Source: Myxococcota bacterium (GTDB taxonomy: Bacteria; Myxococcota_A; UBA9160; UBA4427). From it: a stretch of 64,000 nucleotides of DNA. A program made the position numbers and the translations under genes. Below the pieces are notes generated by a model. The model saw only the letters and a list, made by a program, of their open reading frames with translations, was not told where the DNA came from and made no database searches. Shown piece by piece: positions 49,105-60,855 of the stretch. The stretch lies in assembly GCA_028278345.1 (NCBI GenBank), contig JANQEL010000279.1, positions 1 through 64,000 of the forward strand, written 5' to 3'. Position 1 is the stretch's first letter. Every line of letters begins with the position of its first letter.

Positions 49105-49642
49105 GGCATGGCGCGCGCTCGTGCTCGGCCTCGCGATCGCGGGCCTGAGCTGCGGGGGGAGCGGCGAAGACGATTCCGGCGCATCGGAGAACGACGACGC
49201 CCTCGTCGATCACGAGGAGTGGGAAGAGGTACTTTCCGTCGACGACGTGTTCGGGGACCGCCCGGCCGTCGTCGATTGTCCATTCGGTTGGGCGCCCGAG
49301 CCGTTTGGTGCCGGCGATTCCCTCGGCGTGGATCTCGCAGTGTGCGACTACCTGACGGTGACCCAGCCCTCACTGCGCGATGTTGCGGCGGGCCAGACGG
49401 TTCGCATTCGCGTCTACCACTTTCCCCTCGAGAGCCCTGTTCCCGGTGTTCGGGCCCATCTCGCGATCGCCTTCGATCGCGAGGTCGTGTGGGAGCGCTT
49501 CCTCGACATCCCGGCGGATGCGTCGGTGATCGACGCCGAATTCGTGGCGGGTCGCGAGTTCGCAGCGGGCGTGCCGATCGACTTCCACGTCCACAACCAC
49601 GGGCCCAACTCGTACAACCTGGTGTGGATCGAGCGCGAGTAG
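49088..49642 (+). CDS. Hypothetical lipoprotein
   Basis: 184 residues. The N-terminus is basic, then hydrophobic, ending in a lipobox (ALVLGLAIAGLSCGG), followed by an acidic low-complexity linker (SGEDDSGASENDDALVDHEEWEE). The remaining ~130 residues are beta-rich (RIRVYHFPLESPVPGVRAHLAIAFDREVVWERF...IDFHVHNHGPNSYNLVWIE), suggesting an immunoglobulin-like or cupredoxin-like fold; no family was recognised. The GTG at 49088 (or 49085) overlaps the end of plsB by 17 bases. It is convergent with the outer-membrane protein gene (6 bp gap). Confidence 0.7.
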   Translation: MRSRCRAWRALVLGLAIAGLSCGGSGEDDSGASENDDALVDHEEWEEVLSVDDVFGDRPAVVDCPFGWAPEPFGAGDSLGVDLAVCDYLTVTQPSLRDVAAGQTVRIRVYHFPLESPVPGVRAHLAIAFDREVVWERFLDIPADASVIDAEFVAGREFAAGVPIDFHVHNHGPNSYNLVWIERE

Positions 49643-49648
49643 AGCCGG

Positions 49649-51931
49649 CTAGCGAACGGCTTCGATACTCCAGTGCGTTTCGGCGGGTGGCGGGAAGCTC
49701 TGGCGGTGTTGGAGTTCCATTCGCACCTGACCGTCGTAGCGGCGCGGGATGCCGAAACGCAGCACGCCGTGGGGGAGATCCCATTCGACGATGCGGATCA
49801 GCTGATCGGTGTTGACGTCGCGAAGCAGGGTGGCGCCGAACTGACCGCGTTCCAGGCCGCGGACGGGCGGGCCATAGCGTTTGATCAGCTCTTCGCGGAC
49901 GCGCTCGAAACGTTGACCCGCCGTTTCGATGGCACCCGCGTCGTCGAGCTCGATGATGAGGGCGCTGGCCAGCACGGTTTCGTCGTCGTGAATCACGACC
50001 AGGCGCTGACGTTGATCGATGCGGCGCAGCACCGGGGTTTCGTAGACGTCGAGATCGGTTTGCGCGACGCCGCCCACGATGCCGATCTGGGTGAGCCGCT
50101 TGCGCGTCTCGGCGAGCGGGAGGCCGGGCGCGATCTCTCCCGGGTCTCCGGCCTTGATGTTCGCCGCGACCAGCGGTTGCGTGACTTCGGCCGAGGGTCG
50201 CTCGAGGAAGGCGGGGTGCCCCGGAGCGATCGGGCGTCCCGGTCGGTCGAAGGTGAAGGTCCAGAAGATGCCGAGGTTCCAGGCGTCGGTGTCTTCGCCG
50301 GGTTTCCTGTCGAGACCCAGGTACTCGAACTCGGTGCCGAAGCGGTTGCGGCCGACTTCGACGGTGTAGTCCGCGGTGATGGTGTGGCGTTTGAAGTCGG
50401 TGGCGCCCGCACCCGATTCGCGTTCCTGGATCAACGCGCCGTAGTTGAAGCCGACCGAATGTCCTCGCGCCCCCGCGCGCACCGCGAGCGTCGGCTGGAA
50501 CTCGTCGCTATCCGGGGTGCCGTCGACGATGAAGCGCATCAGGAAGCCGGGGGTGACCACGCCGTCGAAGGGGCCGAGGCTGAAGTCGTGATCGGCGCTG
50601 GTCGAGACCTCGACCGTAGTGCTGTCCGCGTTCGCGGCGGTCTTGTCGTTGTCGTCCCGCACGACCCAGCCCAGGCGGCCCAGCCACCCCCAGCCGACCT
50701 CCGAACTGAGATCGCCATTCCAATTGATCGAAAGGCTCTCCACGGTCTCGGATTCGTTCTCGCGGTGCTGGATGAAGAAGTCGCTCGACCCCTTCACGCT
50801 CGGAAGCAGGTGCAAGCCAATCGGCCCCGATACGTTCACGCCGCCGATCACTGTGTCGGTCTGATCGGCCTTCTGGAAACCGTCGGCGAAGCCCTGCACG
50901 CGTCCGCGCATCTGCACGCCGTTCTCGAATTGCCAGCTGGCGTGGCCTTCCCCCGAAGCGCGGTTGGATGAAACGATCGCTCCCCGCGGTGTGTAGTGGC
51001 GATCGTAGACCTCACCGCGGGCGCGATAGGTGAGGGGAAGATCGGTGTGCCGCCCCGAGACCTCGGCGAGGAAGCCATTGCCCACCTCACCCGTTTCCGC
51101 GCCCAGGTCGCCGAAGGCCAGGGCTTCTTCGAGTTCGATGCTGAGCGCCTGGTCGCCCCACTCGAACTCCTTGAACACGGCGGCGCTCACCACCCCCTGG
51201 TCGCGATCTTCGGGGAAGAAGAGATCGTCGCCCTCGCGGTGGTTGTAGATGCCGTCGACGTGCCATGTGCCGTAGCGATCGGTTTCGAACACGTAGGTGG
51301 CGCCGCTCGAGATGTCGTCGGCGAAGACATCCTCTTCGAAGATCGTCTGCCAGTTGCCTTCGTTCGAACCCATGAAGAGCTGCAGGGAGTCGGCGTTGCC
51401 GGCGATGCGGGGCTGCACCTCCATCTGCACGCCCTTCACCGAACGCTGCTGGGTGAGGATGCTCGTGTGGGAGAAGTAGTCGCCGACCTGCCAGCGATAG
51501 GGAATGGTGCGATCGCCGAACTTCCGATCCCCCGCTTCGCGCGTCAGGTTCATGCGCTCGGGGACGAAGCCGCGATCGGGTGCCCGGTATCCGCGCTTGT
51601 TGAGCAGTACGCCCGAGAGCTGGCCGCGCCACTGGGAGTAGGGCCCGTCGGGGTTGCGGAAGTTCACGTTGAATTCGTCGAAGACCTGGTTGCCCTCGAA
51701 GGGGTAGGGTGACTCGGGGCCGTCGGCGTCGAAGTGGTCGTAGCGCAGGGTGTTCGTGCCGCCGAAGTGCACGTTGGGCAGCGCCGTCACCCGATGGGTG
51801 AGCGCTTCGCTCGGCGGCTCGCCCGCACCCGTTTCTTCGGCTGCGCCCGAAGCACCCGCCCACATCAGCGTCGCGGCGAGCAGGGGCGCCGACCACGAGA
51901 GCAGGGCTCGGATGTGCGGGCTTGGTCGCAT
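49649..51931 (-). CDS. Predicted outer-membrane beta-barrel with C-terminal BamE/SmpA-like domain (exported operon gene 4)
   Basis: 760 residues with a signal peptide (LLSWSAPLLAATLMWAGASGAA). Residues about 50-600 show alternating amphipathic strands rich in Gly, Asp and aromatics, typical of a large outer-membrane barrel (for example GGTNTLRYDHFDADG, FGTEFEYLGLDRK). After GIFWTFTFDRPGRP comes a soluble domain with ETRKRLTQIGIVGG and ELIKRYGPPVRG, resembling BamE/SmpA lipoprotein modules. No TonB box or plug was seen. It is the last gene of the four-gene exported-protein run, six bases after the previous stop. Confidence 0.68.
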   Translation of the reverse strand: MRPSPHIRALLSWSAPLLAATLMWAGASGAAEETGAGEPPSEALTHRVTALPNVHFGGTNTLRYDHFDADGPESPYPFEGNQVFDEFNVNFRNPDGPYSQWRGQLSGVLLNKRGYRAPDRGFVPERMNLTREAGDRKFGDRTIPYRWQVGDYFSHTSILTQQRSVKGVQMEVQPRIAGNADSLQLFMGSNEGNWQTIFEEDVFADDISSGATYVFETDRYGTWHVDGIYNHREGDDLFFPEDRDQGVVSAAVFKEFEWGDQALSIELEEALAFGDLGAETGEVGNGFLAEVSGRHTDLPLTYRARGEVYDRHYTPRGAIVSSNRASGEGHASWQFENGVQMRGRVQGFADGFQKADQTDTVIGGVNVSGPIGLHLLPSVKGSSDFFIQHRENESETVESLSINWNGDLSSEVGWGWLGRLGWVVRDDNDKTAANADSTTVEVSTSADHDFSLGPFDGVVTPGFLMRFIVDGTPDSDEFQPTLAVRAGARGHSVGFNYGALIQERESGAGATDFKRHTITADYTVEVGRNRFGTEFEYLGLDRKPGEDTDAWNLGIFWTFTFDRPGRPIAPGHPAFLERPSAEVTQPLVAANIKAGDPGEIAPGLPLAETRKRLTQIGIVGGVAQTDLDVYETPVLRRIDQRQRLVVIHDDETVLASALIIELDDAGAIETAGQRFERVREELIKRYGPPVRGLERGQFGATLLRDVNTDQLIRIVEWDLPHGVLRFGIPRRYDGQVRMELQHRQSFPPPAETHWSIEAVR

Positions 51932-51937
51932 GGTGGA

Positions 51938-52495
51938 CTACGGCTGCTCCATCTCGGTGATACGCAGGATGAACTCGTTCACGCCCGGCAGCCGCACGAA
52001 GCCCGTCGGTGAGTTGAACTCGAGCTGGGTCTGCGCGACGGCAGAAACGATGCTCGTCCGTGTCTGCGGGCCGTACTCGCTCGGCTCGCTCATGTACTGC
52101 TGCACGGTTCGCACGCTCTGGATCGACTGCAGCTTCAACTGCGCATCTCGTGGAACGTTTGCCTCCACCGCGTCGAGCAACCGCGACTTGTCGTAGAAGC
52201 TGTCGGCCATCGTCTGGGCCATGCGGGGCGAGTTCCAGCGTTCGATGATCTTGCGCAGCTTCGTTTCGACGACCTTTCGCGGAACCGGGGTCGGGTTCTC
52301 GACCGGAACGGCGCCTTCCGGCAGGGCGAGTTGAACGTCGGGGGAGGCAATCGGCTGGATCGCGCGGAAGTTCTGCGCCAGGGCCGCGCCCGCCGTGGCG
52401 ACGGCGAGGAGGAGGGTTGTGCCCGCCGCGAGCTGGAACGCGGGGTGCCCTGCGTTCTTCTTTCGCTTCGAATTCGCCATGTCGCTCTTTCTCAT
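51938..52495 (-). CDS. Exported hypothetical protein (exported operon gene 3)
   Basis: Not recognised. 185 residues with a basic start, a signal-like hydrophobic segment ending in LLLAVATAGAALAQ, then a helical domain (RKVVETKLRKIIERWNSPRMAQTMADSFYDKSRLLDAVEANVP) and a C-terminal beta-rich part (TQLEFNSPTGFVRLPGVNEFILRITEMEQ). Probably periplasmic. ATG 52495 was chosen; ATG 52480 would remove five residues and keep the signal. It lies 20 bases after the kinase-like gene and six before the barrel gene. Confidence 0.7.
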   Translation of the reverse strand: MRKSDMANSKRKKNAGHPAFQLAAGTTLLLAVATAGAALAQNFRAIQPIASPDVQLALPEGAVPVENPTPVPRKVVETKLRKIIERWNSPRMAQTMADSFYDKSRLLDAVEANVPRDAQLKLQSIQSVRTVQQYMSEPSEYGPQTRTSIVSAVAQTQLEFNSPTGFVRLPGVNEFILRITEMEQP

Positions 52496-52515
52496 TGCAT
52501 GAACGCCCTTTGGCC

Positions 52516-55500
52516 TCAGTTCCGAATCGCGCACTGCGAGCGCGGAATCACGATCACGTCGTCGACCGTCCCGTAGCCGCAGACGAGGGGGGCTGGATCG
52601 GACTGCGATCCGCCGTTGCAGTCGAGCACGGGAAGCACGATCGCGCGGGTGTCGTGGTAGTGGGGATCGTCACAGTCGTCGGGATCCGACGGACCCGAGA
52701 ACTGATCGATCGGAATGAACACCCCACCCGGTCGCGGCAGCACCTCGATGCCGTCGATGATCGAACCGCTCCCAAGGTTGCCCCCGTCCTCGCCCAACGG
52801 GTCGCGGGCGTCGTAGGGGTTGTTGCCGAGGATGAAGATCACCTGGATGAGTTCGGCGTAGCTCGAGAACGCGCCGTCGTCTTCGTCGTCACCGCAGTAG
52901 AACCACTCGCAGACCTCGAGGGCATCGAGCAGGGCATCGAGCCGTGCATTCACGGCGGGCGTGTCGACGCCGCTGGCGACCAGCTGGTTGTACTCGATCA
53001 CGTAGTGGATGCAGGGCGGGCAGTAGGTCATGATGCCGCCGGTCGGAAGGCCCGGGCCCATCTCGAAGTGGATGGGATCGACGACGGGAATCCCGCTGAA
53101 GCCACCGGCCGAGATGAGGCCCGAACCGCCCCCTTCTTCGTCGTCGGGCAGGCGCACCGGGTTGCGGCGCGTGCCGCTGTAGTCGGGACTGCGATCCTTG
53201 GCGCGTTCCCACAGGCTCCGGTCGCGTTGTGGGGCTGCGGGGTGCTCACCACCGGTGCCCGGGCCGAGGGGTGTGTTCGGGTCGGGATCGGGCGGTCGCA
53301 GCGGACCCGAGATGCCCGGGTTCTCCACGCCGTTCGACGGGTTCATCGGGAAGCGCTTGTTCATCAGCAGGTCGATGTTGCTGTAGCCCTCACCCAGGGT
53401 GTGGAACTGGAAGTCCGGGTGGAGGTCGTTGATGGCATCCCAATCGATCAGGTGGTCGAAGTTCTCGGCCAGCCATTCTGTGTGGATCTGGCGACCGGTG
53501 ACCTGCCGCGGGTCCAGGGGGTTCTCCCACTCGACGCCGGGAGCCACGGCTTCGTCGATCGGGTTGTCGAGGGCGTGTTGCAGGCGGCGGGCGGCGGCCG
53601 GGTCGAGGTTCTTCATTGGGACGATGCTGCCCGCGTCGAGGATCACGAGCTTCCACTCATCCGGCTCGCCGACCTTCCGGAACGCGTAGTTGTCCGGCTT
53701 GTTGTCGAGCATCACGAAGCCGTTCTCGTTGATCTTCTCCATCGCGCGTCGGTAGGCGCGCCGCCGGCCCGGGGTCATCACCTCTCCGGCTTCGCGTGCC
53801 TTGCGCCAATCGGTGGGCGCGCGGTCGACGACTTCGACGATGCCGCCATCCATCTGGTGGCCTTCGGCGGCGACGCGGTGCTGCGAGTGGCGTCGCGGCA
53901 GTTCGAACGCATTGCCATCCGGGTCCATGTTGCGAAGCGCACGATGCCCCGCGTTGTCGAGCGCCTGCCCGGCGGGGTCGGCCTTCGAAATGCGCACCAC
54001 GACATCGCTGCGGCCCGGAACGCTATACACCTCTGTCGTCGAACCCTTGCCCATCGGCGTTGCGGGCAATTCGAGGCGCGTGCCGTCGTTGCGCAGCAGC
54101 ACGATGTTGGGTTGGCCCTGGGGATCCAGGATGTTCACGTTCATGTGGGTGCCCCACGGCGTTCCGTCCGCGGGGTAGTCATCGCCGTAGCGCTGGGCCG
54201 GGGGGATGTTGTCGGCTGCGCCGGCACCGGTCGGTGTGCCGCTGGTCGCTGCGCGACTGGCGTCACCGGTCGCGCCGGCGCCCGGCGTCGGAATGGCACC
54301 GGCCGGGGGAACGGCGCCCGAAGGCGGCAACGCGTTGGTGGCCCACAAGGTGACGCCTCGAACCGCCCGGGGCGCCGCGGCCGCAACGCGGAACAGCGCC
54401 TCTTCGACACCGACCACCGTGCCGACCACGTATCCCGTGTCTTCGAGAGCCCGCCGGACGTTGCCGCTGCCGGCGGTCGATTCGACGCGGCGCTCGAGTT
54501 GGCGCGCGACGTTCTCGCCGAGCTGCACGAGTTCCTGTGCGAGCCGCGCGCCCTCGGGATCGTTCGGGTCGAGGATCTTCGCGAAGCCGCTGCGGATGCG
54601 TTCGAGGGTGGCGAGGTTTTCGCTGCCGAAGAAGTCGCTGCGCACTCCGAAGGCTTCTTCGAGGAAGGCTTCGAAGGCTTCGCCCTGGGTGTCGAGACCC
54701 TCCTTCGCGATCATGGCCAGGTCCTTGACCGCGTCGACGCCGGCGCGCGTTACGCCCTTGGTATAGGCGCCCATGCGCAGGGAGAACTCGTACCAGGTCA
54801 GGTCGGCGTTGGTCGACGCGACGTCGGAGAAGAAGCTCCCCCAAGTGTTCTCGAACTCGGCCATCGACGGGGCGCCCTGGGCGATGGCGAGGGCGCTGGT
54901 TCCGGCTGCGGATTCGGCCGCGGAGTCGATGGCGGTGATCTCGGCGATCATCTCACCGCCTTGTGCTTCGCTGAGCTCGCCTCGCCCGATGCGTTCATTG
55001 ATGTCGGTGATGACCCGACGAATCGTGCTGCGCGATTCGCCGGAGTTGGTTTCGCCGATGCCGTCCTGGCGATTGCGATCGAAGAACTGCTCCTGCTGCT
55101 GCACGTGTCGCCGCAGCTCGCTGTCCATGCTGTTGCGCCACTCGGTGTGGGCCTCGGTGATCTTCTGCCGTTCGGCGAGCAGGTCCAACACGGCCTGACT
55201 GTCGGGGGCGCGCGTCGTGACCATCTGCGATTGGTCGACGACGCCCGTGAACTGGGAGGCGCTCGGGGCGGGAGTCTTGGCGCGCTCGGCCGCGATCTGG
55301 GCATCGAGGGCCGCGAGCTGGTTGTTGAACTGGGTTTCGCCAGCTTCGATCTGCGCGCGCTGGGTCGCCACGTTGCGCACGTGTTCCATCGCCTCGACCG
55401 AGCGTCGTGCGCGGTCTTCCGCCAGGAGGCGAGGCGACGACTTGATGATCTCGACCTCGTAGGCGCGATCCTGCTCCATCGCGTTCTGCCGCGCGGTCTC

Positions 55501-56379
55501 GATCTGGGTGCGCGTGCGCGCAATCTGCTGGTCGAGGTTTCGTTCCTGGACCGTGGCGTTCTCGAGGTTGGTTCTCGCGGTACCCGAGGGCGTCGATTGG
55601 CCGAAGATCCCGACGGTGAAGTCGTAGATGTCGTTCAGGAAGTCGGTGTGCTCCTCGACCAGATCGACTTGCGCTTGCGCGTCACGTCGCGCCTGCTGTG
55701 TCGTTGCGAGCTGGTTCTGCTGGTTGTTGAGCGTCTGGATCAGCCCGTTGATCTCCGCCGTCGCCTCTTGTCGGGCCTGCAGGCGCTGGCCCTGCAAGGT
55801 GGCGACGCGATCGTTGATCTCGGTGTTGCTCGAGCCCATCGCCTCGAGCTCGGTGCGCGAATCGCGCAGCTGGGTGCGGATGCTGTTCGTGCGGTGCTGC
55901 GCGGACTGCACGGCGCGCTTCAGCGCAGCTTCCTCGTCGCTTTCGTAGCCGAAGAGGTTCATCGCGCGATCGCGCAGTTCGCGTGGGTTGTAGGCCGTGG
56001 AGTTGTCTTCGTAGTACTGGATCAGGTCGGCGTACGCGGCATTCTCGGCGGCGATCGCGCCCGGGAGCGCCTCTTCCCGTTGGCTGATCTGCGACTCCAG
56101 CCGCGCGCGCTGGGCGTTGGCCTCGCGCATGGCGTCGACCTCGGCCTGGGTGAGTTCACGGCGCTGGCTGCCGGCGTTGGGGTCGATGGGTACGGCGTGG
56201 TACTCGCGCGTGCCGCTGAACTCTCGCGTCGTGAGACCCGCCGCAGATGCACGGGCGACTTCCTCGGGCGTGAGGATGCCCGTGTGGGTGTGTTGGCTCG
56301 CGCGAACGTCCTGCATCAGCCCCGCCACGGCGATGGCCAGACCGAGCGAAACTCCGCAGCGCCAGAGCACCGACCTCAC
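52516..56379 (-). CDS. Exported coiled-coil protein with a protein-kinase-like domain (exported operon gene 2)
   Basis: 1287 residues. A signal peptide (VLWRCGVSLGLAIAVAGLMQDVRA) is followed by a long coiled-coil region (about 60-480), a hydrophobic stretch near 640-690 and a Pro/Gly/Ala linker. Next is a kinase-like domain (about 770-930): MGKGSTTEVYSV as glycine loop (from 776), VVVRISK, a catalytic-loop equivalent MLDNKPDN (Asp892, Asn897 at +5) and ILDAG (Asp915) in place of DFG. The ~280-residue tail has a CPPC pair and more Cys, fitting an oxidising compartment. No known family was recognised. The GTG start overlaps the previous stop. Confidence 0.75.
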   Translation of the reverse strand: MRSVLWRCGVSLGLAIAVAGLMQDVRASQHTHTGILTPEEVARASAAGLTTREFSGTREYHAVPIDPNAGSQRRELTQAEVDAMREANAQRARLESQISQREEALPGAIAAENAAYADLIQYYEDNSTAYNPRELRDRAMNLFGYESDEEAALKRAVQSAQHRTNSIRTQLRDSRTELEAMGSSNTEINDRVATLQGQRLQARQEATAEINGLIQTLNNQQNQLATTQQARRDAQAQVDLVEEHTDFLNDIYDFTVGIFGQSTPSGTARTNLENATVQERNLDQQIARTRTQIETARQNAMEQDRAYEVEIIKSSPRLLAEDRARRSVEAMEHVRNVATQRAQIEAGETQFNNQLAALDAQIAAERAKTPAPSASQFTGVVDQSQMVTTRAPDSQAVLDLLAERQKITEAHTEWRNSMDSELRRHVQQQEQFFDRNRQDGIGETNSGESRSTIRRVITDINERIGRGELSEAQGGEMIAEITAIDSAAESAAGTSALAIAQGAPSMAEFENTWGSFFSDVASTNADLTWYEFSLRMGAYTKGVTRAGVDAVKDLAMIAKEGLDTQGEAFEAFLEEAFGVRSDFFGSENLATLERIRSGFAKILDPNDPEGARLAQELVQLGENVARQLERRVESTAGSGNVRRALEDTGYVVGTVVGVEEALFRVAAAAPRAVRGVTLWATNALPPSGAVPPAGAIPTPGAGATGDASRAATSGTPTGAGAADNIPPAQRYGDDYPADGTPWGTHMNVNILDPQGQPNIVLLRNDGTRLELPATPMGKGSTTEVYSVPGRSDVVVRISKADPAGQALDNAGHRALRNMDPDGNAFELPRRHSQHRVAAEGHQMDGGIVEVVDRAPTDWRKAREAGEVMTPGRRRAYRRAMEKINENGFVMLDNKPDNYAFRKVGEPDEWKLVILDAGSIVPMKNLDPAAARRLQHALDNPIDEAVAPGVEWENPLDPRQVTGRQIHTEWLAENFDHLIDWDAINDLHPDFQFHTLGEGYSNIDLLMNKRFPMNPSNGVENPGISGPLRPPDPDPNTPLGPGTGGEHPAAPQRDRSLWERAKDRSPDYSGTRRNPVRLPDDEEGGGSGLISAGGFSGIPVVDPIHFEMGPGLPTGGIMTYCPPCIHYVIEYNQLVASGVDTPAVNARLDALLDALEVCEWFYCGDDEDDGAFSSYAELIQVIFILGNNPYDARDPLGEDGGNLGSGSIIDGIEVLPRPGGVFIPIDQFSGPSDPDDCDDPHYHDTRAIVLPVLDCNGGSQSDPAPLVCGYGTVDDVIVIPRSQCAIRN

Positions 56380-57896
56380 GGCTGATCCTCCCCGGTCGGA
56401 GTGCGCTGGATGCGGATGGCTTCCGCACCGTCGACGCCGCCCTCGATCGGCGCGCCCGGATCGCGCGTCGTCTGTTGCCCGGTGTTCGGAGCGCGGATCA
56501 CGCGGCGCTCGCTCTGACTCGGCGGTGTGGTCGTCTGGTCTTCGGTGGGTGCGATGCGGAAGCCGCCGCCGGATTGGCCGGCCGGGTCCGTTCCGCGCTG
56601 GATGCGATCGAGCAGGCGCGGGCTCTGGCCCGTCCCCTGGGAATCGTCCATCGGTGCACCGCCGCGATCGAAGGTCCACTGACTCGACGAGGGGCCGCCA
56701 CCCGACGACGATTCGACTTCGCGCGTCACGAGTTGATCGCGCGGGCTGCTGCGTCCGAAGGAGGGACCGCCGATCGCACCCTGATTGGTTGCGCGCGGCG
56801 CATCCGGCGGCGGTTGTCCCGCTGCGGCGGCTTCGGCGCCGGGACCGACGCCCATCACGGCTTCGGCATGCGCCTTCATGGCCAGCATCTCGGGGATCGA
56901 CATGGAGGCGATCTCTCCGAGGGAGGGCAACCAGGCCCAATCATCGGGTGAGTTCCGGACGTAGGGGCCGAGGATCGCGTCGACGAAGCGGCTCGCCAGG
57001 GCGCGCATCTCTTCGGTGCAATCCTTGTCGCCGAGTTGCGCGGGCGGCTCGCCGATCAACCAATAGAAGGTGCATAGATCGGTAGTCGCGAGTCGCTCGG
57101 GGCCGCCACCGGGAGGCGGCGGCGGTCGGAAGTGCATGTGCCCGCTGATCGTGTAGGTCTTGCGCACCGCGTTGCAGTCGGTCGAGGGCGACCACGCGTG
57201 CCACACCACGACCTCGCCTTCGATCTCCTCGAAGTTGGGTTGGTGGAACGTCGGCGGAGGCATCATGCCGGGAGGGATGATGATGTTGCCGAAGTCGATC
57301 CATCCGTCGCCGGAGTGGTGCGGACCGGGAGGCTCGGGAGCGAGCTGTACCGTACCCGTCACCGTCGTATCGCCGGGGGGAACGGTCACGACGTTCGGCA
57401 TGGTGAGGTAGGGGTTGTCGTAGACGAAGATGCCGACGTCCTGCGGTGAATCACACTTGTTGTGGATCACCAGAGGGGCCGCGAACACCGAGTCGTAGTA
57501 GCGCTCACCCCAGGGCCAATCGGCCTTTCCGCTTCCGACGAAGACCTGGTTGAGGCCGGCGCCGCTACTGCCTTCCCACTCCTCGCCGGGATCCTTGGTC
57601 GGATTCTTGAGCGGGTGATGGGGATCTTCGCGCGGGTCGTACTCTTCACCGCGCGGCCCGCGGTAGTCGTCGCCGAAGTCGGGAGAGAAACCGTTGTCGG
57701 GGGAGTACGCGCTCTCGTCCCAGCCGCGCGGCGGGCGATCACCCGACCAGTCGCGGTTGCGCACGTCGGAGGCCGCTGCGGGAGGAGCGTGAACGCCGGC
57801 GAGGATCGAGACGACGCAGGCCGTGATCACCGCGGCGATCCGGCGCCGTCGTGGGATGACGGTCGATGCCGGATGCAGAAGGAAGGCAACTCCCAT
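56376..57896 (-). CDS. Exported proline-rich hypothetical protein (exported operon gene 1)
   Basis: 506 residues, not recognised. A basic signal peptide (RRRRIAAVITACVVSILAGVHAPPAAAS) precedes an acidic, aromatic region (NRDWSGDRPPRGWDE), a beta-rich domain with paired Cys (VIHNKCDSPQDVGIFVYDNPY...GEVVVWHAWSPSTDC, roughly 140-255), a Pro/Gly stretch and a helical segment (CTEEMRALASRFVDAILGPY). The last ~150 residues are a Ser/Gly/Gln/Arg-rich disordered tail. First gene of the four-gene minus-strand run; its stop overlaps the start of the kinase-like gene (GTGA). Confidence 0.72.
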   Translation of the reverse strand: MGVAFLLHPASTVIPRRRRIAAVITACVVSILAGVHAPPAAASDVRNRDWSGDRPPRGWDESAYSPDNGFSPDFGDDYRGPRGEEYDPREDPHHPLKNPTKDPGEEWEGSSGAGLNQVFVGSGKADWPWGERYYDSVFAAPLVIHNKCDSPQDVGIFVYDNPYLTMPNVVTVPPGDTTVTGTVQLAPEPPGPHHSGDGWIDFGNIIIPPGMMPPPTFHQPNFEEIEGEVVVWHAWSPSTDCNAVRKTYTISGHMHFRPPPPPGGGPERLATTDLCTFYWLIGEPPAQLGDKDCTEEMRALASRFVDAILGPYVRNSPDDWAWLPSLGEIASMSIPEMLAMKAHAEAVMGVGPGAEAAAAGQPPPDAPRATNQGAIGGPSFGRSSPRDQLVTREVESSSGGGPSSSQWTFDRGGAPMDDSQGTGQSPRLLDRIQRGTDPAGQSGGGFRIAPTEDQTTTPPSQSERRVIRAPNTGQQTTRDPGAPIEGGVDGAEAIRIQRTPTGEDQP

Positions 57897-58017
57897 GCAG
57901 AGAAATCTGACACGTTCGCTCTTCGTTGGTCAAGGTCTATGCGCCATGCAACCCGGCGGCGTTGCAGTGCAAGCGCAGCGGGAGCCGGACAGGTCGGAGT
58001 CGATCTACATTCTGGGC

Positions 58018-58854
58018 ATGGGTGCGCACGCGTTCAGGCGAAGCGGGAATCGAGCGGTCTTTGCACTGGTTACGCTCGCGTGCCTCCTGGCCTGCGGGGG
58101 CACCGGAGGGGGAAGCAGGGAAGAGGGCGCTCTCACCCTGGTCTTCCGCCATCAGAACGACGGCGCAGCCCTCGAGATCGACCAGCTCATCTACCAGAAC
58201 GAGGCGGGTAACCAGTACAGCGTCGAGAAGTTCGAATACCTGATCACGGACATCTGGCTGATCCGGGAAGACGGACGAATCGTCGAGGTTGCGGATGCGA
58301 TCCAGGGCAACGCGGTCACCCTGGGTGCGATCGACCACCCGTTCGAAGGGGTTCCCGCCGGGCGCTACACGGCGATCGAGTTTCGCTGGGGCATTCATCC
58401 CGATCGCAACCGGAACTTCACCCTCGACTCGAGCTTCGACAATCTGCTCTGGCCGCCGAATCTGGGCGGGGGGTATCACGCGATGCGGTTCGAGGGAGAT
58501 TGGAGCCTCGCCGCGCCCGGTGATTCGAGCTTCTCACTGCACAGCGGCTATCTCCGCGCAGCCGGTCGCCGCGAGGCCGATGGGTCCTTCGTCGTTCGAC
58601 TCGATGGCTTCGCGATCACCCTCCGCGACGAGGGCGAAATCGAGATCGAGATTGCGATCGACGTCGACCGTTGGATGAACGATCCGCTGATCGATCTCAC
58701 CGCCGAGTGGGCCGATCAATCGATCTGTCCCCTGGCGGCGCCGGCGACCTGCACCCTGGCGGCGTTTTCGATGATGAACCCCGAAACCCAGGAACTCCTG
58801 CGGGACAACGGTGACGACGTCTTCAGCCTCCTGGACGCTCGTTCCTCGCGGTGA
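58018..58854 (+). CDS. mbnP: MbnP-like copper-binding lipoprotein
   Basis: Member of the MbnP family, periplasmic copper-binding proteins whose site depends on a tryptophan oxidised to kynurenine by the partner MbnH. The 278 residues have a lipobox (LACLLACGG, Cys26), YSVEKFEYLITDIWLIREDGRIVEV, typical of the family, and LLWPPNLGGGYHAMRFEG at about 143-160. Trp145 sits where relatives have a conserved Trp-containing motif, so it is the candidate for modification (inference). No methanobactin genes are nearby. mbnH follows after four bases. Confidence 0.85.
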   Translation: MGAHAFRRSGNRAVFALVTLACLLACGGTGGGSREEGALTLVFRHQNDGAALEIDQLIYQNEAGNQYSVEKFEYLITDIWLIREDGRIVEVADAIQGNAVTLGAIDHPFEGVPAGRYTAIEFRWGIHPDRNRNFTLDSSFDNLLWPPNLGGGYHAMRFEGDWSLAAPGDSSFSLHSGYLRAAGRREADGSFVVRLDGFAITLRDEGEIEIEIAIDVDRWMNDPLIDLTAEWADQSICPLAAPATCTLAAFSMMNPETQELLRDNGDDVFSLLDARSSR

Positions 58855-58858
58855 TCCG

Positions 58859-59974
58859 ATGTTGCGCGGGTTCCTCGTCCTTCTTCTACTACTGCTCGTC
58901 GCAGGTGCGGGCTGTGGCAAGTCGAAGAGCGGATCGTCGGATGACGAAGGCCCGACCCCGGTCGACCTCGACCTGCCGCGGGAGGGCCTCGCGAACTGGC
59001 CCGAGATGCCCATCCCCGCCGACAACCCCACCACCGAGGAGGGCATCGCCCTCGGTCGGCACCTCTTCTACGACCCGATCCTCTCGGGAGACGACACGCT
59101 CTCGTGCGCGAGTTGTCATCGCCAGGAAGCCGCGTTCTCCGATGGGCCGAATCGCTTGAGCAATGGAAGCGGAGGAGCGCTCGGGAGCTTCAATGCCAAT
59201 GCCCTCGCGAACCTCGGCTGGCTCTCGGCACGTCCCTTCGCGATCGAAGTCGCCGGGCAGACCCTCTCGATGTTCTGGGACGGTCGCGCCGAGAGCCTCG
59301 AAGCCCAGGCCATCGAGCCCGTGCAGAATGCGACCGAGCTCGATCAACCGTGGCCGCTTCTGCTACAGGAGCTGGCCGCCCACCCCGAGTATCCGGCGCG
59401 CTTCGAAGCTGCCTTCGGCAGTCGTGAGATCACCCAGCAACACGTCGTCCAGGCGCTCGCCCAGTTCCAACGTTCGCTGCGCTCCTTCGATTCGAAATGG
59501 GATCGCGTGCAACGGGGCGAAGACGTCTTCACCGATGCCGAAGCCCGCGGTTTCGACGCGTTCACGGGTGAGGTCGGGGATTGCTGGCATTGCCACGGCG
59601 GAAATCTCGCGCTCTTCGTCAACCAGGGCACACCCTTTGCGAACAACGGCCTCGACTCGAGTCCCGACCCCGGCTTGATGGGGCCGACCGGGCGCGCGGA
59701 CTTCGAGGGCCTGTTTCGCGTGATGAGTCTGCGCAACATCGAAGTCACCGGGCCCTACATGCACGACGGGCGCTTCGAGACCCTCGAAGAGGTTCTCGCC
59801 TTCTACAGCGATGACGTCGCCCTCGACAGCCCGAACCTCGACTCGAACCTGCGCACGCGCGTCATTGCTGGGCCGATCCCGGCGCAGGCCCAGGCCGACA
59901 TCATCGCCTTCCTGAAGACGCTGACGGACCAGACATTCCTGACCGAAGAGGCCTTCTCCGATCCGTTCCGCTGA
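58859..59974 (+). CDS. mbnH: MbnH/MauG-type di-haem enzyme
   Basis: Di-haem protein of the cytochrome c peroxidase/MauG superfamily, expected to oxidise a tryptophan of the adjacent MbnP. The 371 residues have a lipoprotein-type signal (LLLLLLVAGAGCG, Cys19), two c-type haem motifs (CASCH at 83-87 and CWHCH at 242-246), FYDPILSGDDTLSC and the C-terminal VTGPYMHDGRFETLEEVLAFY. An ordinary cytochrome c peroxidase is the alternative, but linkage to mbnP favours MbnH. The stop is eight bases from the convergent VOC gene. Confidence 0.88.
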   Translation: MLRGFLVLLLLLLVAGAGCGKSKSGSSDDEGPTPVDLDLPREGLANWPEMPIPADNPTTEEGIALGRHLFYDPILSGDDTLSCASCHRQEAAFSDGPNRLSNGSGGALGSFNANALANLGWLSARPFAIEVAGQTLSMFWDGRAESLEAQAIEPVQNATELDQPWPLLLQELAAHPEYPARFEAAFGSREITQQHVVQALAQFQRSLRSFDSKWDRVQRGEDVFTDAEARGFDAFTGEVGDCWHCHGGNLALFVNQGTPFANNGLDSSPDPGLMGPTGRADFEGLFRVMSLRNIEVTGPYMHDGRFETLEEVLAFYSDDVALDSPNLDSNLRTRVIAGPIPAQAQADIIAFLKTLTDQTFLTEEAFSDPFR

Positions 59975-59982
59975 TCGTCGTT

Positions 59983-60855
59983 CTAGCGATCGAGATGCTG
60001 GATGATCAGCGTCGGCACGCCGACGGGTTCGCCCTTGATCGTGAAGACGCGCGTGCCCGGCTTGTTGCCGTCGCGGAAGTCGCTGATTTCGAGGCCGGCT
60101 TCTTCGACGCGCTTCGCCGCGGCGTCGATGTCGTCGACCTGATAGGCGAGGCCAAAGAACCGGTCGTCGGGGGCCTCGCCTTCGGGCGCGGGGCCACGCA
60201 GGGAGTGCCCGACTTCGATCGTCATGCCGCCCACGCGGAAGAAGAGCAGGCGCACCCAGCGCTCGTCGAAGGTGCGATCGAGGGCGAGGCGGATGTCGAG
60301 CTTGTCGCGAAACAGCTCGATGGCGCGCTCGGGTCGCGCGGTGAAGATCACCACGTGATCGCCGGCCTTGACGGACGCCGCCTCGTTGCCGATCGGCAGC
60401 GACGGCGGGTCTTCGCCGGACTCGTCGAGGGTCTGGTTGAGTTCGATGCGGATGCCCGCCGCGTCTTCCGGCGCGAGCCCGCTGCGCAACATGCGGCGAT
60501 AGGCGCCCGAGGGTTCGTCGCGCGCGATGACCTCGACGGGATCGTGCGGGGAGAGCCCGCGCTCGCGCAGGGTTTCGATCGTTTCTTCGAGGTTGCCGGT
60601 TTCGAGCACGACGGCGTGGAGGCCGGCACCGCCAACGTCCAGGCGCTTCCTCAGTGCGGCGTTCGCGTCGCTCTCCTCGCGCGGGCTCACGAGTTCGACG
60701 TGGAGGTTGTCGAGGCGAAAGGAGACGCAGCCGATGCCGACGGCGGCGTATTCACCGATCCAGGCGGGGCTGCGGCCGAGCACGCCGATCATCTCGCGCT
60801 GGGCGCGTTCGAGGTCGGGGACGGCGATCACGACGCGATCGATGCAGTGGAACAT
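59983..60855 (-). CDS. VOC-superfamily (glyoxalase-fold) protein
   Basis: 290 residues with two vicinal-oxygen-chelate modules: residues 1-130 (FHCIDRVVIAVPDLERAQREMIGVLG...AGLHAVVLETGN) and about 175-290 (GDHVVIFTARPERAIELFRDKLDI...FGLAYQVDDIDAAAKRVEEAG). The function is open: dioxygenase, isomerase, lyase or resistance-type binding. AAAGGAAG six bases upstream supports ATG 60855 and rejects a longer upstream frame. Nearest upstream neighbour, 22 bp away in the same direction, is an amidase. Confidence 0.83.
   Translation of the reverse strand: MFHCIDRVVIAVPDLERAQREMIGVLGRSPAWIGEYAAVGIGCVSFRLDNLHVELVSPREESDANAALRKRLDVGGAGLHAVVLETGNLEETIETLRERGLSPHDPVEVIARDEPSGAYRRMLRSGLAPEDAAGIRIELNQTLDESGEDPPSLPIGNEAASVKAGDHVVIFTARPERAIELFRDKLDIRLALDRTFDERWVRLLFFRVGGMTIEVGHSLRGPAPEGEAPDDRFFGLAYQVDDIDAAAKRVEEAGLEISDFRDGNKPGTRVFTIKGEPVGVPTLIIQHLDR

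What the first reader, a model, noticed from the sequence alone, without database searches (positions are those of the whole stretch)
49649..57896. Four-gene operon of exported proteins around a secreted kinase-fold protein
Four minus-strand genes with 4 bp overlaps or gaps of 20 bp or less encode only proteins with signal peptides: a Pro-rich protein with paired Cys, a 1287-residue coiled-coil/kinase-like protein, a small periplasmic protein and a predicted outer-membrane barrel with a BamE-like tail. The kinase-like domain keeps a glycine loop, a DxKPDN catalytic loop (Asp892, Asn897) and a DxG (Asp915), although the protein is exported and the periplasm lacks ATP. It could be an exported kinase, a delivered effector or a ligand-binding pseudokinase assembled with its own outer-membrane component. 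I do not recognise this arrangement as a described system.
Basis: partly seen in the sequence, partly recalled or inferred. Interest (0 to 1): 0.72.

Follow-up and report, generated by a model that had tools for sequence, protein, structure and literature searches.

The report
Exported kinase-like cargo with outer-membrane module
The window holds a horizontally acquired four-gene operon that is conserved across two bacterial phyla; it pairs an exported protein carrying a kinase-like domain with a small periplasmic protein and a large outer-membrane barrel, and elsewhere the same barrel pair sits beside quite different exported proteins, which suggests an undescribed export or surface-assembly cassette with interchangeable cargo.

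Summary
Four co-directional genes (A, B, C, D) encode only exported proteins, and none has a curated family match. A global scan found the same four genes in the same order in a gammaproteobacterial MAG. Two more relatives followed (one ABCD, one BCD). The mid-part of B is almost certainly kinase-fold: its four-member profile finds protein kinases and aligns with 11 host kinases far above shuffled controls. Asp892, Lys894, Asn897, Asp915 and the glycine loop are invariant in all four. The beta3 lysine is present in the three relatives but is Arg796 here, so this copy may be a pseudokinase. AlphaFold models were too poor to decide.

The main new result is that C-D is the constant part. In about 10 of 369 gammaproteobacteria D occurs, usually with C behind a different exported protein. 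Two of these share B's C-terminal domain (GNNPYDxxDP motif, glycine/serine linker, four cysteines, HxH) but lack the kinase. I read B as one payload of an undescribed outer-membrane export/assembly cassette that works like, but is not, T11SS/Slam. The 10.9-kb block is missing from three sister genomes, with a clean empty site, so it was gained horizontally. Actual export, kinase activity and substrate remain untested.

The parts
49107..59984 (.). Acquired block (about 10.9 kb) between plsB and a glyoxalase-family gene; includes the operon and an MbnP/MbnH-like pair
   Evidence: Sister genomes G001-G003 match both sides but lack it; in G002 the two flanks lie 24 bp apart
56376..57896 (-). Gene A: exported Pro-rich protein with four Cys conserved in the L014 homologue (C148, C241, C275, C293); possible Ig-like domain
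   Evidence: weak FixG_C Ig-like hit in the L014 homologue (E=0.007, below cut-off)
52516..56379 (-). Gene B: exported 1287-aa cargo protein: coiled coil, helical region, kinase-like domain, Cys-rich C-terminal domain
53425..54072 (-). Kinase-like domain of B (about residues 770-985): G777/G779, R796 (beta3 position), D892/K894/N897, D915/G917
52519..52863 (-). C-terminal cargo domain of B (residues 1173-1287): GNNPYDARDP motif at 1185, four conserved Cys and HYH; shared with kinase-free cargos
   Evidence: blastp E 6e-14 and 4e-16 to cargos L036 and L038; motif scan
51938..52495 (-). Gene C: small exported (periplasmic) protein, constant partner of D
   Evidence: Nine-member alignment A8; adjacent to D in most D-bearing loci
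49649..51931 (-). Gene D: predicted large outer-membrane beta-barrel with C-terminal alpha/beta domain
   Evidence: HMM hits in 10 of 369 gammaproteobacteria; long consecutive beta strands, and the listed Foldseek hits are outer-membrane barrel proteins, low-confidence model
49652..50137 (-). C-terminal alpha/beta tail of D; strongly conserved; exists free-standing as a putative lipoprotein in L045
   Evidence: Alignment A9, 13 members; BamE resemblance weak

Best explanation
A mobile cassette for exporting and assembling a large protein at the outer membrane. B, and probably its partner A, cross the inner membrane by their signal peptides (inferred). In the periplasm the disulfide-stabilised C-terminal domain of B (GNNPYDxxDP motif, linker, four Cys/HxH domain) is recognised by C and by the C-terminal domain of the barrel D. 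D then places B in or across the outer membrane (inferred from constant C-D, variable cargo and shared cargo C-terminus). The payload between coiled coil and C-terminal domain is interchangeable; here it is a kinase-fold domain. In this genome that domain more likely binds a ligand or nucleotide as a pseudokinase than phosphorylates, because the beta3 lysine is arginine; the relatives keep the full catalytic set and may be active outside the cytoplasm. Shown: gene linkage, kinase-like profile, cargo exchange with shared C-terminus, horizontal gain. Inferred: translocation, recognition, surface location, activity.
For: Same gene order in two phyla. D family in 10 of 369 gammaproteobacteria, with C next to it and a different exported protein upstream in most loci. 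Cargos L036 and L038 lack the kinase but share the C-terminal domain (E down to 2e-23). The motif occurs once each in 9 of 11 cargos, 102-211 residues from the end; the 3 hits in the comparison set equal the number of those cargos that lie in it, and shuffled cargo tails give at most 1 (pattern chosen after seeing the sequences). Kinase: 21 of 22 PDB profile hits are kinases, mostly in register (E 0.12-1.8); the profile also finds a real bacterial Ser/Thr kinase, E=8e-4; hhalign to 11 host kinases scores 45.8 against 22.0 for the best of 60 column shuffles; D, K, N, D, G invariant in four. D: barrel-like model hits. No Cys in the kinase domain; the Cys conserved among the full-length B proteins lie in the C-terminal domain.
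Against: No direct evidence of translocation. Cargos L041 and L042 lack the motif, L043 has C-D with no evident cargo and L040 has D apart from C. AlphaFold models are poor (pLDDT 36.9 and 29.3). PDB and Foldseek kinase hits are individually not significant. Arg796 argues against catalysis in this copy.
Confidence: 0.5

Rival explanations
1. Active exported kinase: B phosphorylates extracytoplasmic or neighbouring-cell targets, using ATP outside the cell or inside a recipient.
For: Three of four members keep glycine loop, beta3 Lys, catalytic Asp/Lys/Asn and DxG; the catalytic loop is among the most conserved stretches of B (67% identity to L014).
Against: The window copy has Arg at the beta3 Lys position; no periplasmic ATP; no known recipient; no HRD His/Arg; no alphaC Glu can be assigned confidently.
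Confidence: 0.2
2. Ligand-binding pseudokinase in the periplasm: A-B-C-D form a sensor or scaffold at the outer membrane and nothing is translocated; D is a channel or anchor.
For: Arg796; coiled-coil architecture; no export evidence; C and A look like periplasmic binding or Ig-like proteins.
Against: Exchange of cargo with a shared C-terminal domain is what a cargo module, not a fixed sensor, would show; kinase residues stay conserved in relatives.
Confidence: 0.25
3. Surface fibre or adhesin assembly locus: B is a structural surface protein and the kinase fold is a structural or binding domain.
For: Other cargos are coiled-coil, repeat (L041) or possibly beta-sandwich-like (L042) proteins.
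Against: Conserved catalytic residues are not needed for a structural role.
Confidence: 0.25
4. The kinase resemblance is chance: a short DxKxDN motif in an unrelated fold.
For: No Pfam kinase hit in any member; low-confidence AlphaFold model.
Against: Profile-profile score well above 60 shuffles; canonical motifs in order in four divergent proteins; kinases dominate independent sequence and structure searches.
Confidence: 0.08

Closest known systems
Type 11 secretion system (Slam / DUF560 outer-membrane proteins; PMC8406197, PMC12282271)
   Same: Outer-membrane barrel encoded beside cargos with variable N-terminal parts and a shared C-terminal domain; often on mobile islands
   Different: D has no DUF560 match; its soluble domain is at the C-terminus, not an N-terminal TPR domain; the cargo C-terminal domain is a Cys/HxH domain with a GNNP motif and no Pfam match to known cargo barrel domains; a dedicated small periplasmic partner C is constant
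Protein kinase superfamily (bacterial Hanks-type Ser/Thr kinases, PF00069)
   Same: Glycine loop, DxKxxN catalytic loop, DxG, same order and secondary-structure order
   Different: Exported; no HRD; no Pfam-level similarity; lacks assignable alphaC Glu; beta3 Lys replaced by Arg in the window copy
CotH spore-coat kinase and Fam20 secretory-pathway kinases (PMC7821199, PMC7948968)
   Same: Precedent for kinase-fold proteins that act in the spore coat or the secretory pathway
   Different: No sequence match found; different compartments and architectures; not encoded with an outer-membrane barrel
LptD (LPS transporter)
   Same: Best Foldseek neighbours of the low-confidence D model: large many-stranded barrel
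   Different: No LptD Pfam match; D has a C-terminal alpha/beta tail; hits not significant (E 0.002 at best)

Membership tests
Protein kinase superfamily | Glycine-rich loop, catalytic Asp-x-Lys-x-x-Asn, DxG in order | tested here: met
   Invariant in 4/4 members; profile evidence
Protein kinase superfamily | beta3 lysine | tested here: not met
   Arg796 in the window; Lys in L014, L019, L020
Protein kinase superfamily | Kinase fold | tested here: inconclusive
   AlphaFold pLDDT 36.9; Foldseek hits mostly kinases but E 0.04 at best
Protein kinase superfamily | Phosphotransfer activity | not testable with these tools
   Needs biochemistry
Type 11 secretion system | DUF560 (SlipAM) barrel domain | tested here: not met
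   No Pfam match for four D proteins
Type 11 secretion system | N-terminal periplasmic TPR domain | tested here: not met
   No TPR match; soluble domain is C-terminal
[quoted passage not shown]
   No Pfam match of the cargo C-terminal domain; structure unknown
BamE / SmpA-OmlA | BamE domain in the D tail | tested here: inconclusive
   Only free-standing relative L045 hits PF04355 at E=0.07, below cut-off; none of 13 tails in the per-member scan, no BamE in the PDB search
Outer-membrane beta-barrel | Signal peptide followed by many amphipathic antiparallel strands | tested here: inconclusive
   Long consecutive strands in a low-confidence model; the listed Foldseek hits are outer-membrane barrel proteins

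The most novel reading that the evidence does not exclude
C-D is a new outer-membrane protein secretion system of Gram-negative bacteria with its own C-terminal secretion domain (GNNPYDxxDP plus Cys/HxH), and one of its cargo classes is a catalytically competent kinase delivered to the cell surface or beyond.
Probability: 0.15. Interest if true: 0.9.

Novelty: new variant of a known kind. Interest (0 to 1): 0.62.

Why it matters
If right, a barrel/partner pair present in a few percent of sampled gammaproteobacteria, with no match in Pfam and none in NCBIfam for the window copies, is a dedicated route for large disulfide-bonded proteins to the bacterial surface, recognisable by a short cargo motif. 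The kinase-bearing class would give a testable case of kinase-fold proteins outside the bacterial cytoplasm, with natural Lys and Arg versions to compare.

Tried and rejected
Viral contigs and plasmids gave no relatives; the five viral DNKPDNY hits are chance matches in other proteins or frames. Weak hits to the kinase query in five genomes of the window's phylum (20-25 bits, two with internal stops) were judged probably spurious and not followed up. Contamination of the assembly as the source was rejected: the flanks are 82% identical to a genome of the same genus. An insertion with direct repeats at the ends was looked for and not found. C gave no meaningful PDB match. AlphaFold of the kinase domain and of D with two sequences failed to give usable confidence; I kept to sequences the tool permits and did not add the other loci. 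A single origin for kinase-bearing loci is not supported: the four D proteins are not one clade (AU p=0.024; L020 apart). tblastx for synteny was too noisy and was replaced by blastn. The GC3 value for C was computed out of frame and is not used.

Full report
Observation. The four minus-strand genes exist as described: A 56376-57896, B 52516-56379 (GTG start overlapping A's stop by 4 bp), C 51938-52495, D 49649-51931. All have N-terminal signal-like segments, which recur in the homologues. None matches a curated Pfam or NCBIfam family.

Distribution. B is absent from 60 relatives including three genomes of the same genus. The kinase-like region is convincingly present in no other of 379 genomes of the phylum, and D in no other of 80 order genomes by sequence search or 284 phylum genomes by HMM. 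One scan of 85,000 species genomes with the catalytic-loop segment returned a single relative, a contig of a MAG labelled Neptunomonas (L014, G+C 0.51). It carries all four genes in the same order, with neighbours overlapping or only a few bp apart. Searching that order with a D profile gave two more loci: L019, ABCD on a 3.7-Mb contig, and L020, BCD with assembly gaps.

Horizontal gain. The left flank is 82% identical to sister genome G002. There the plsB stop and the glyoxalase gene are 24 bp apart, while the window has 10.9 kb between them. G001 and G003 also lack the block. The D tree places the window among gammaproteobacterial sequences, with a midpoint root for drawing only. Base composition is host-like, so the gain is not recent or the donor was G+C rich. 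No flanking repeats were found.

Kinase-like domain. In four divergent members the glycine loop, the LDxKxDN loop and DxG are invariant. The beta3 lysine is present in three; the window has Arg796. The four-member profile hits 22 PDB sequences, of which 21 are protein kinases, each weak alone (E 0.12-1.8) but mostly in register. An unforced genome search with the same profile picked up a true bacterial Ser/Thr kinase at its catalytic loop (E=8e-4). Alignment to 11 kinases of the host genome scores 45.8 (P 6e-6) against at most 22.0 for 60 column shuffles and 14.6 reversed. AlphaFold with two sequences gave pLDDT 36.9, too low to rely on, although the order of helices and strands is kinase-like and most of the listed Foldseek neighbours are kinases. 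I treat the kinase fold as likely and catalysis in this copy as unlikely.

The constant part is C-D. A D profile found the family in about 10 of 369 gammaproteobacteria. In most of these loci C sits directly upstream of D and a different exported protein precedes C: Cys-rich coiled-coil proteins (L035-L039), a repeat protein (L041), a possibly beta-sandwich-like protein (L042). Two kinase-free cargos, L036 and L038, share the C-terminal domain of B (E 6e-14 to 2e-23): GNNPYDxxDP, a Gly/Ser linker, four invariant Cys, HxH and CGxG. The short motif alone is in 9 of 11 cargos, once each, 102-211 residues from the end (the pattern was written after seeing the sequences, so its statistics are descriptive). 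A was recognised only beside kinase-bearing B.

D. The low-confidence model consists of long consecutive strands followed by an alpha/beta tail, and the listed Foldseek hits are outer-membrane barrel proteins, LptD first. The tail is strongly conserved and exists alone as a putative lipoprotein in L045. Its BamE resemblance is weak (E=0.07 for L045) and not found for the others.

Mechanism. Interchangeable exported proteins with a common C-terminal domain next to a constant periplasmic partner and barrel is the pattern by which T11SS cargo was recognised (PMC8406197, PMC12282271). D is not a T11SS protein by the tests made here (no DUF560, no N-terminal TPR). By analogy I propose that C and D recognise the cargo C-terminal domain and move or anchor it at the outer membrane, with the kinase-like region as payload. 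Translocation and recognition are inferred. Four literature searches turned up no paper that describes this arrangement in the held open-access library; absence there is not proof of novelty.

Limits. Four kinase-bearing members only; no usable structures; no expression or localisation data; the host phylum was not identified by name. Prevalence figures come from samples of genomes.

Noticed in passing
window 57823-59974 (+): MbnP-like lipoprotein (PF20243, E=3e-19) and di-haem MbnH/MauG-like peroxidase (PF03150, E=2e-48) lie divergently beside A inside the same acquired block; they are not seen in the other ABCD loci read.
   Followed up: partly
window 49108-49642 (+): Small putative lipoprotein gene at the other edge of the acquired block, no Pfam match.
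   Followed up: no
L045 3609-4307 (-): Free-standing version of the D tail domain with a lipoprotein-like signal (LAGC), in a genome (G709) that also has a full C-D locus.
   Followed up: partly
L041 8315-9442 (+): Cargo made of repeats of about 20 residues (GVPTIQTAPLRFGVAADGGE) upstream of C-D.
   Followed up: no
L039 12157-14136 (+): A second large exported coiled-coil protein directly downstream of D; possibly a second cargo.
   Followed up: no
L044 9214-10527 (+): Divergent D-like barrel without C, tail or evident cargo.
   Followed up: no
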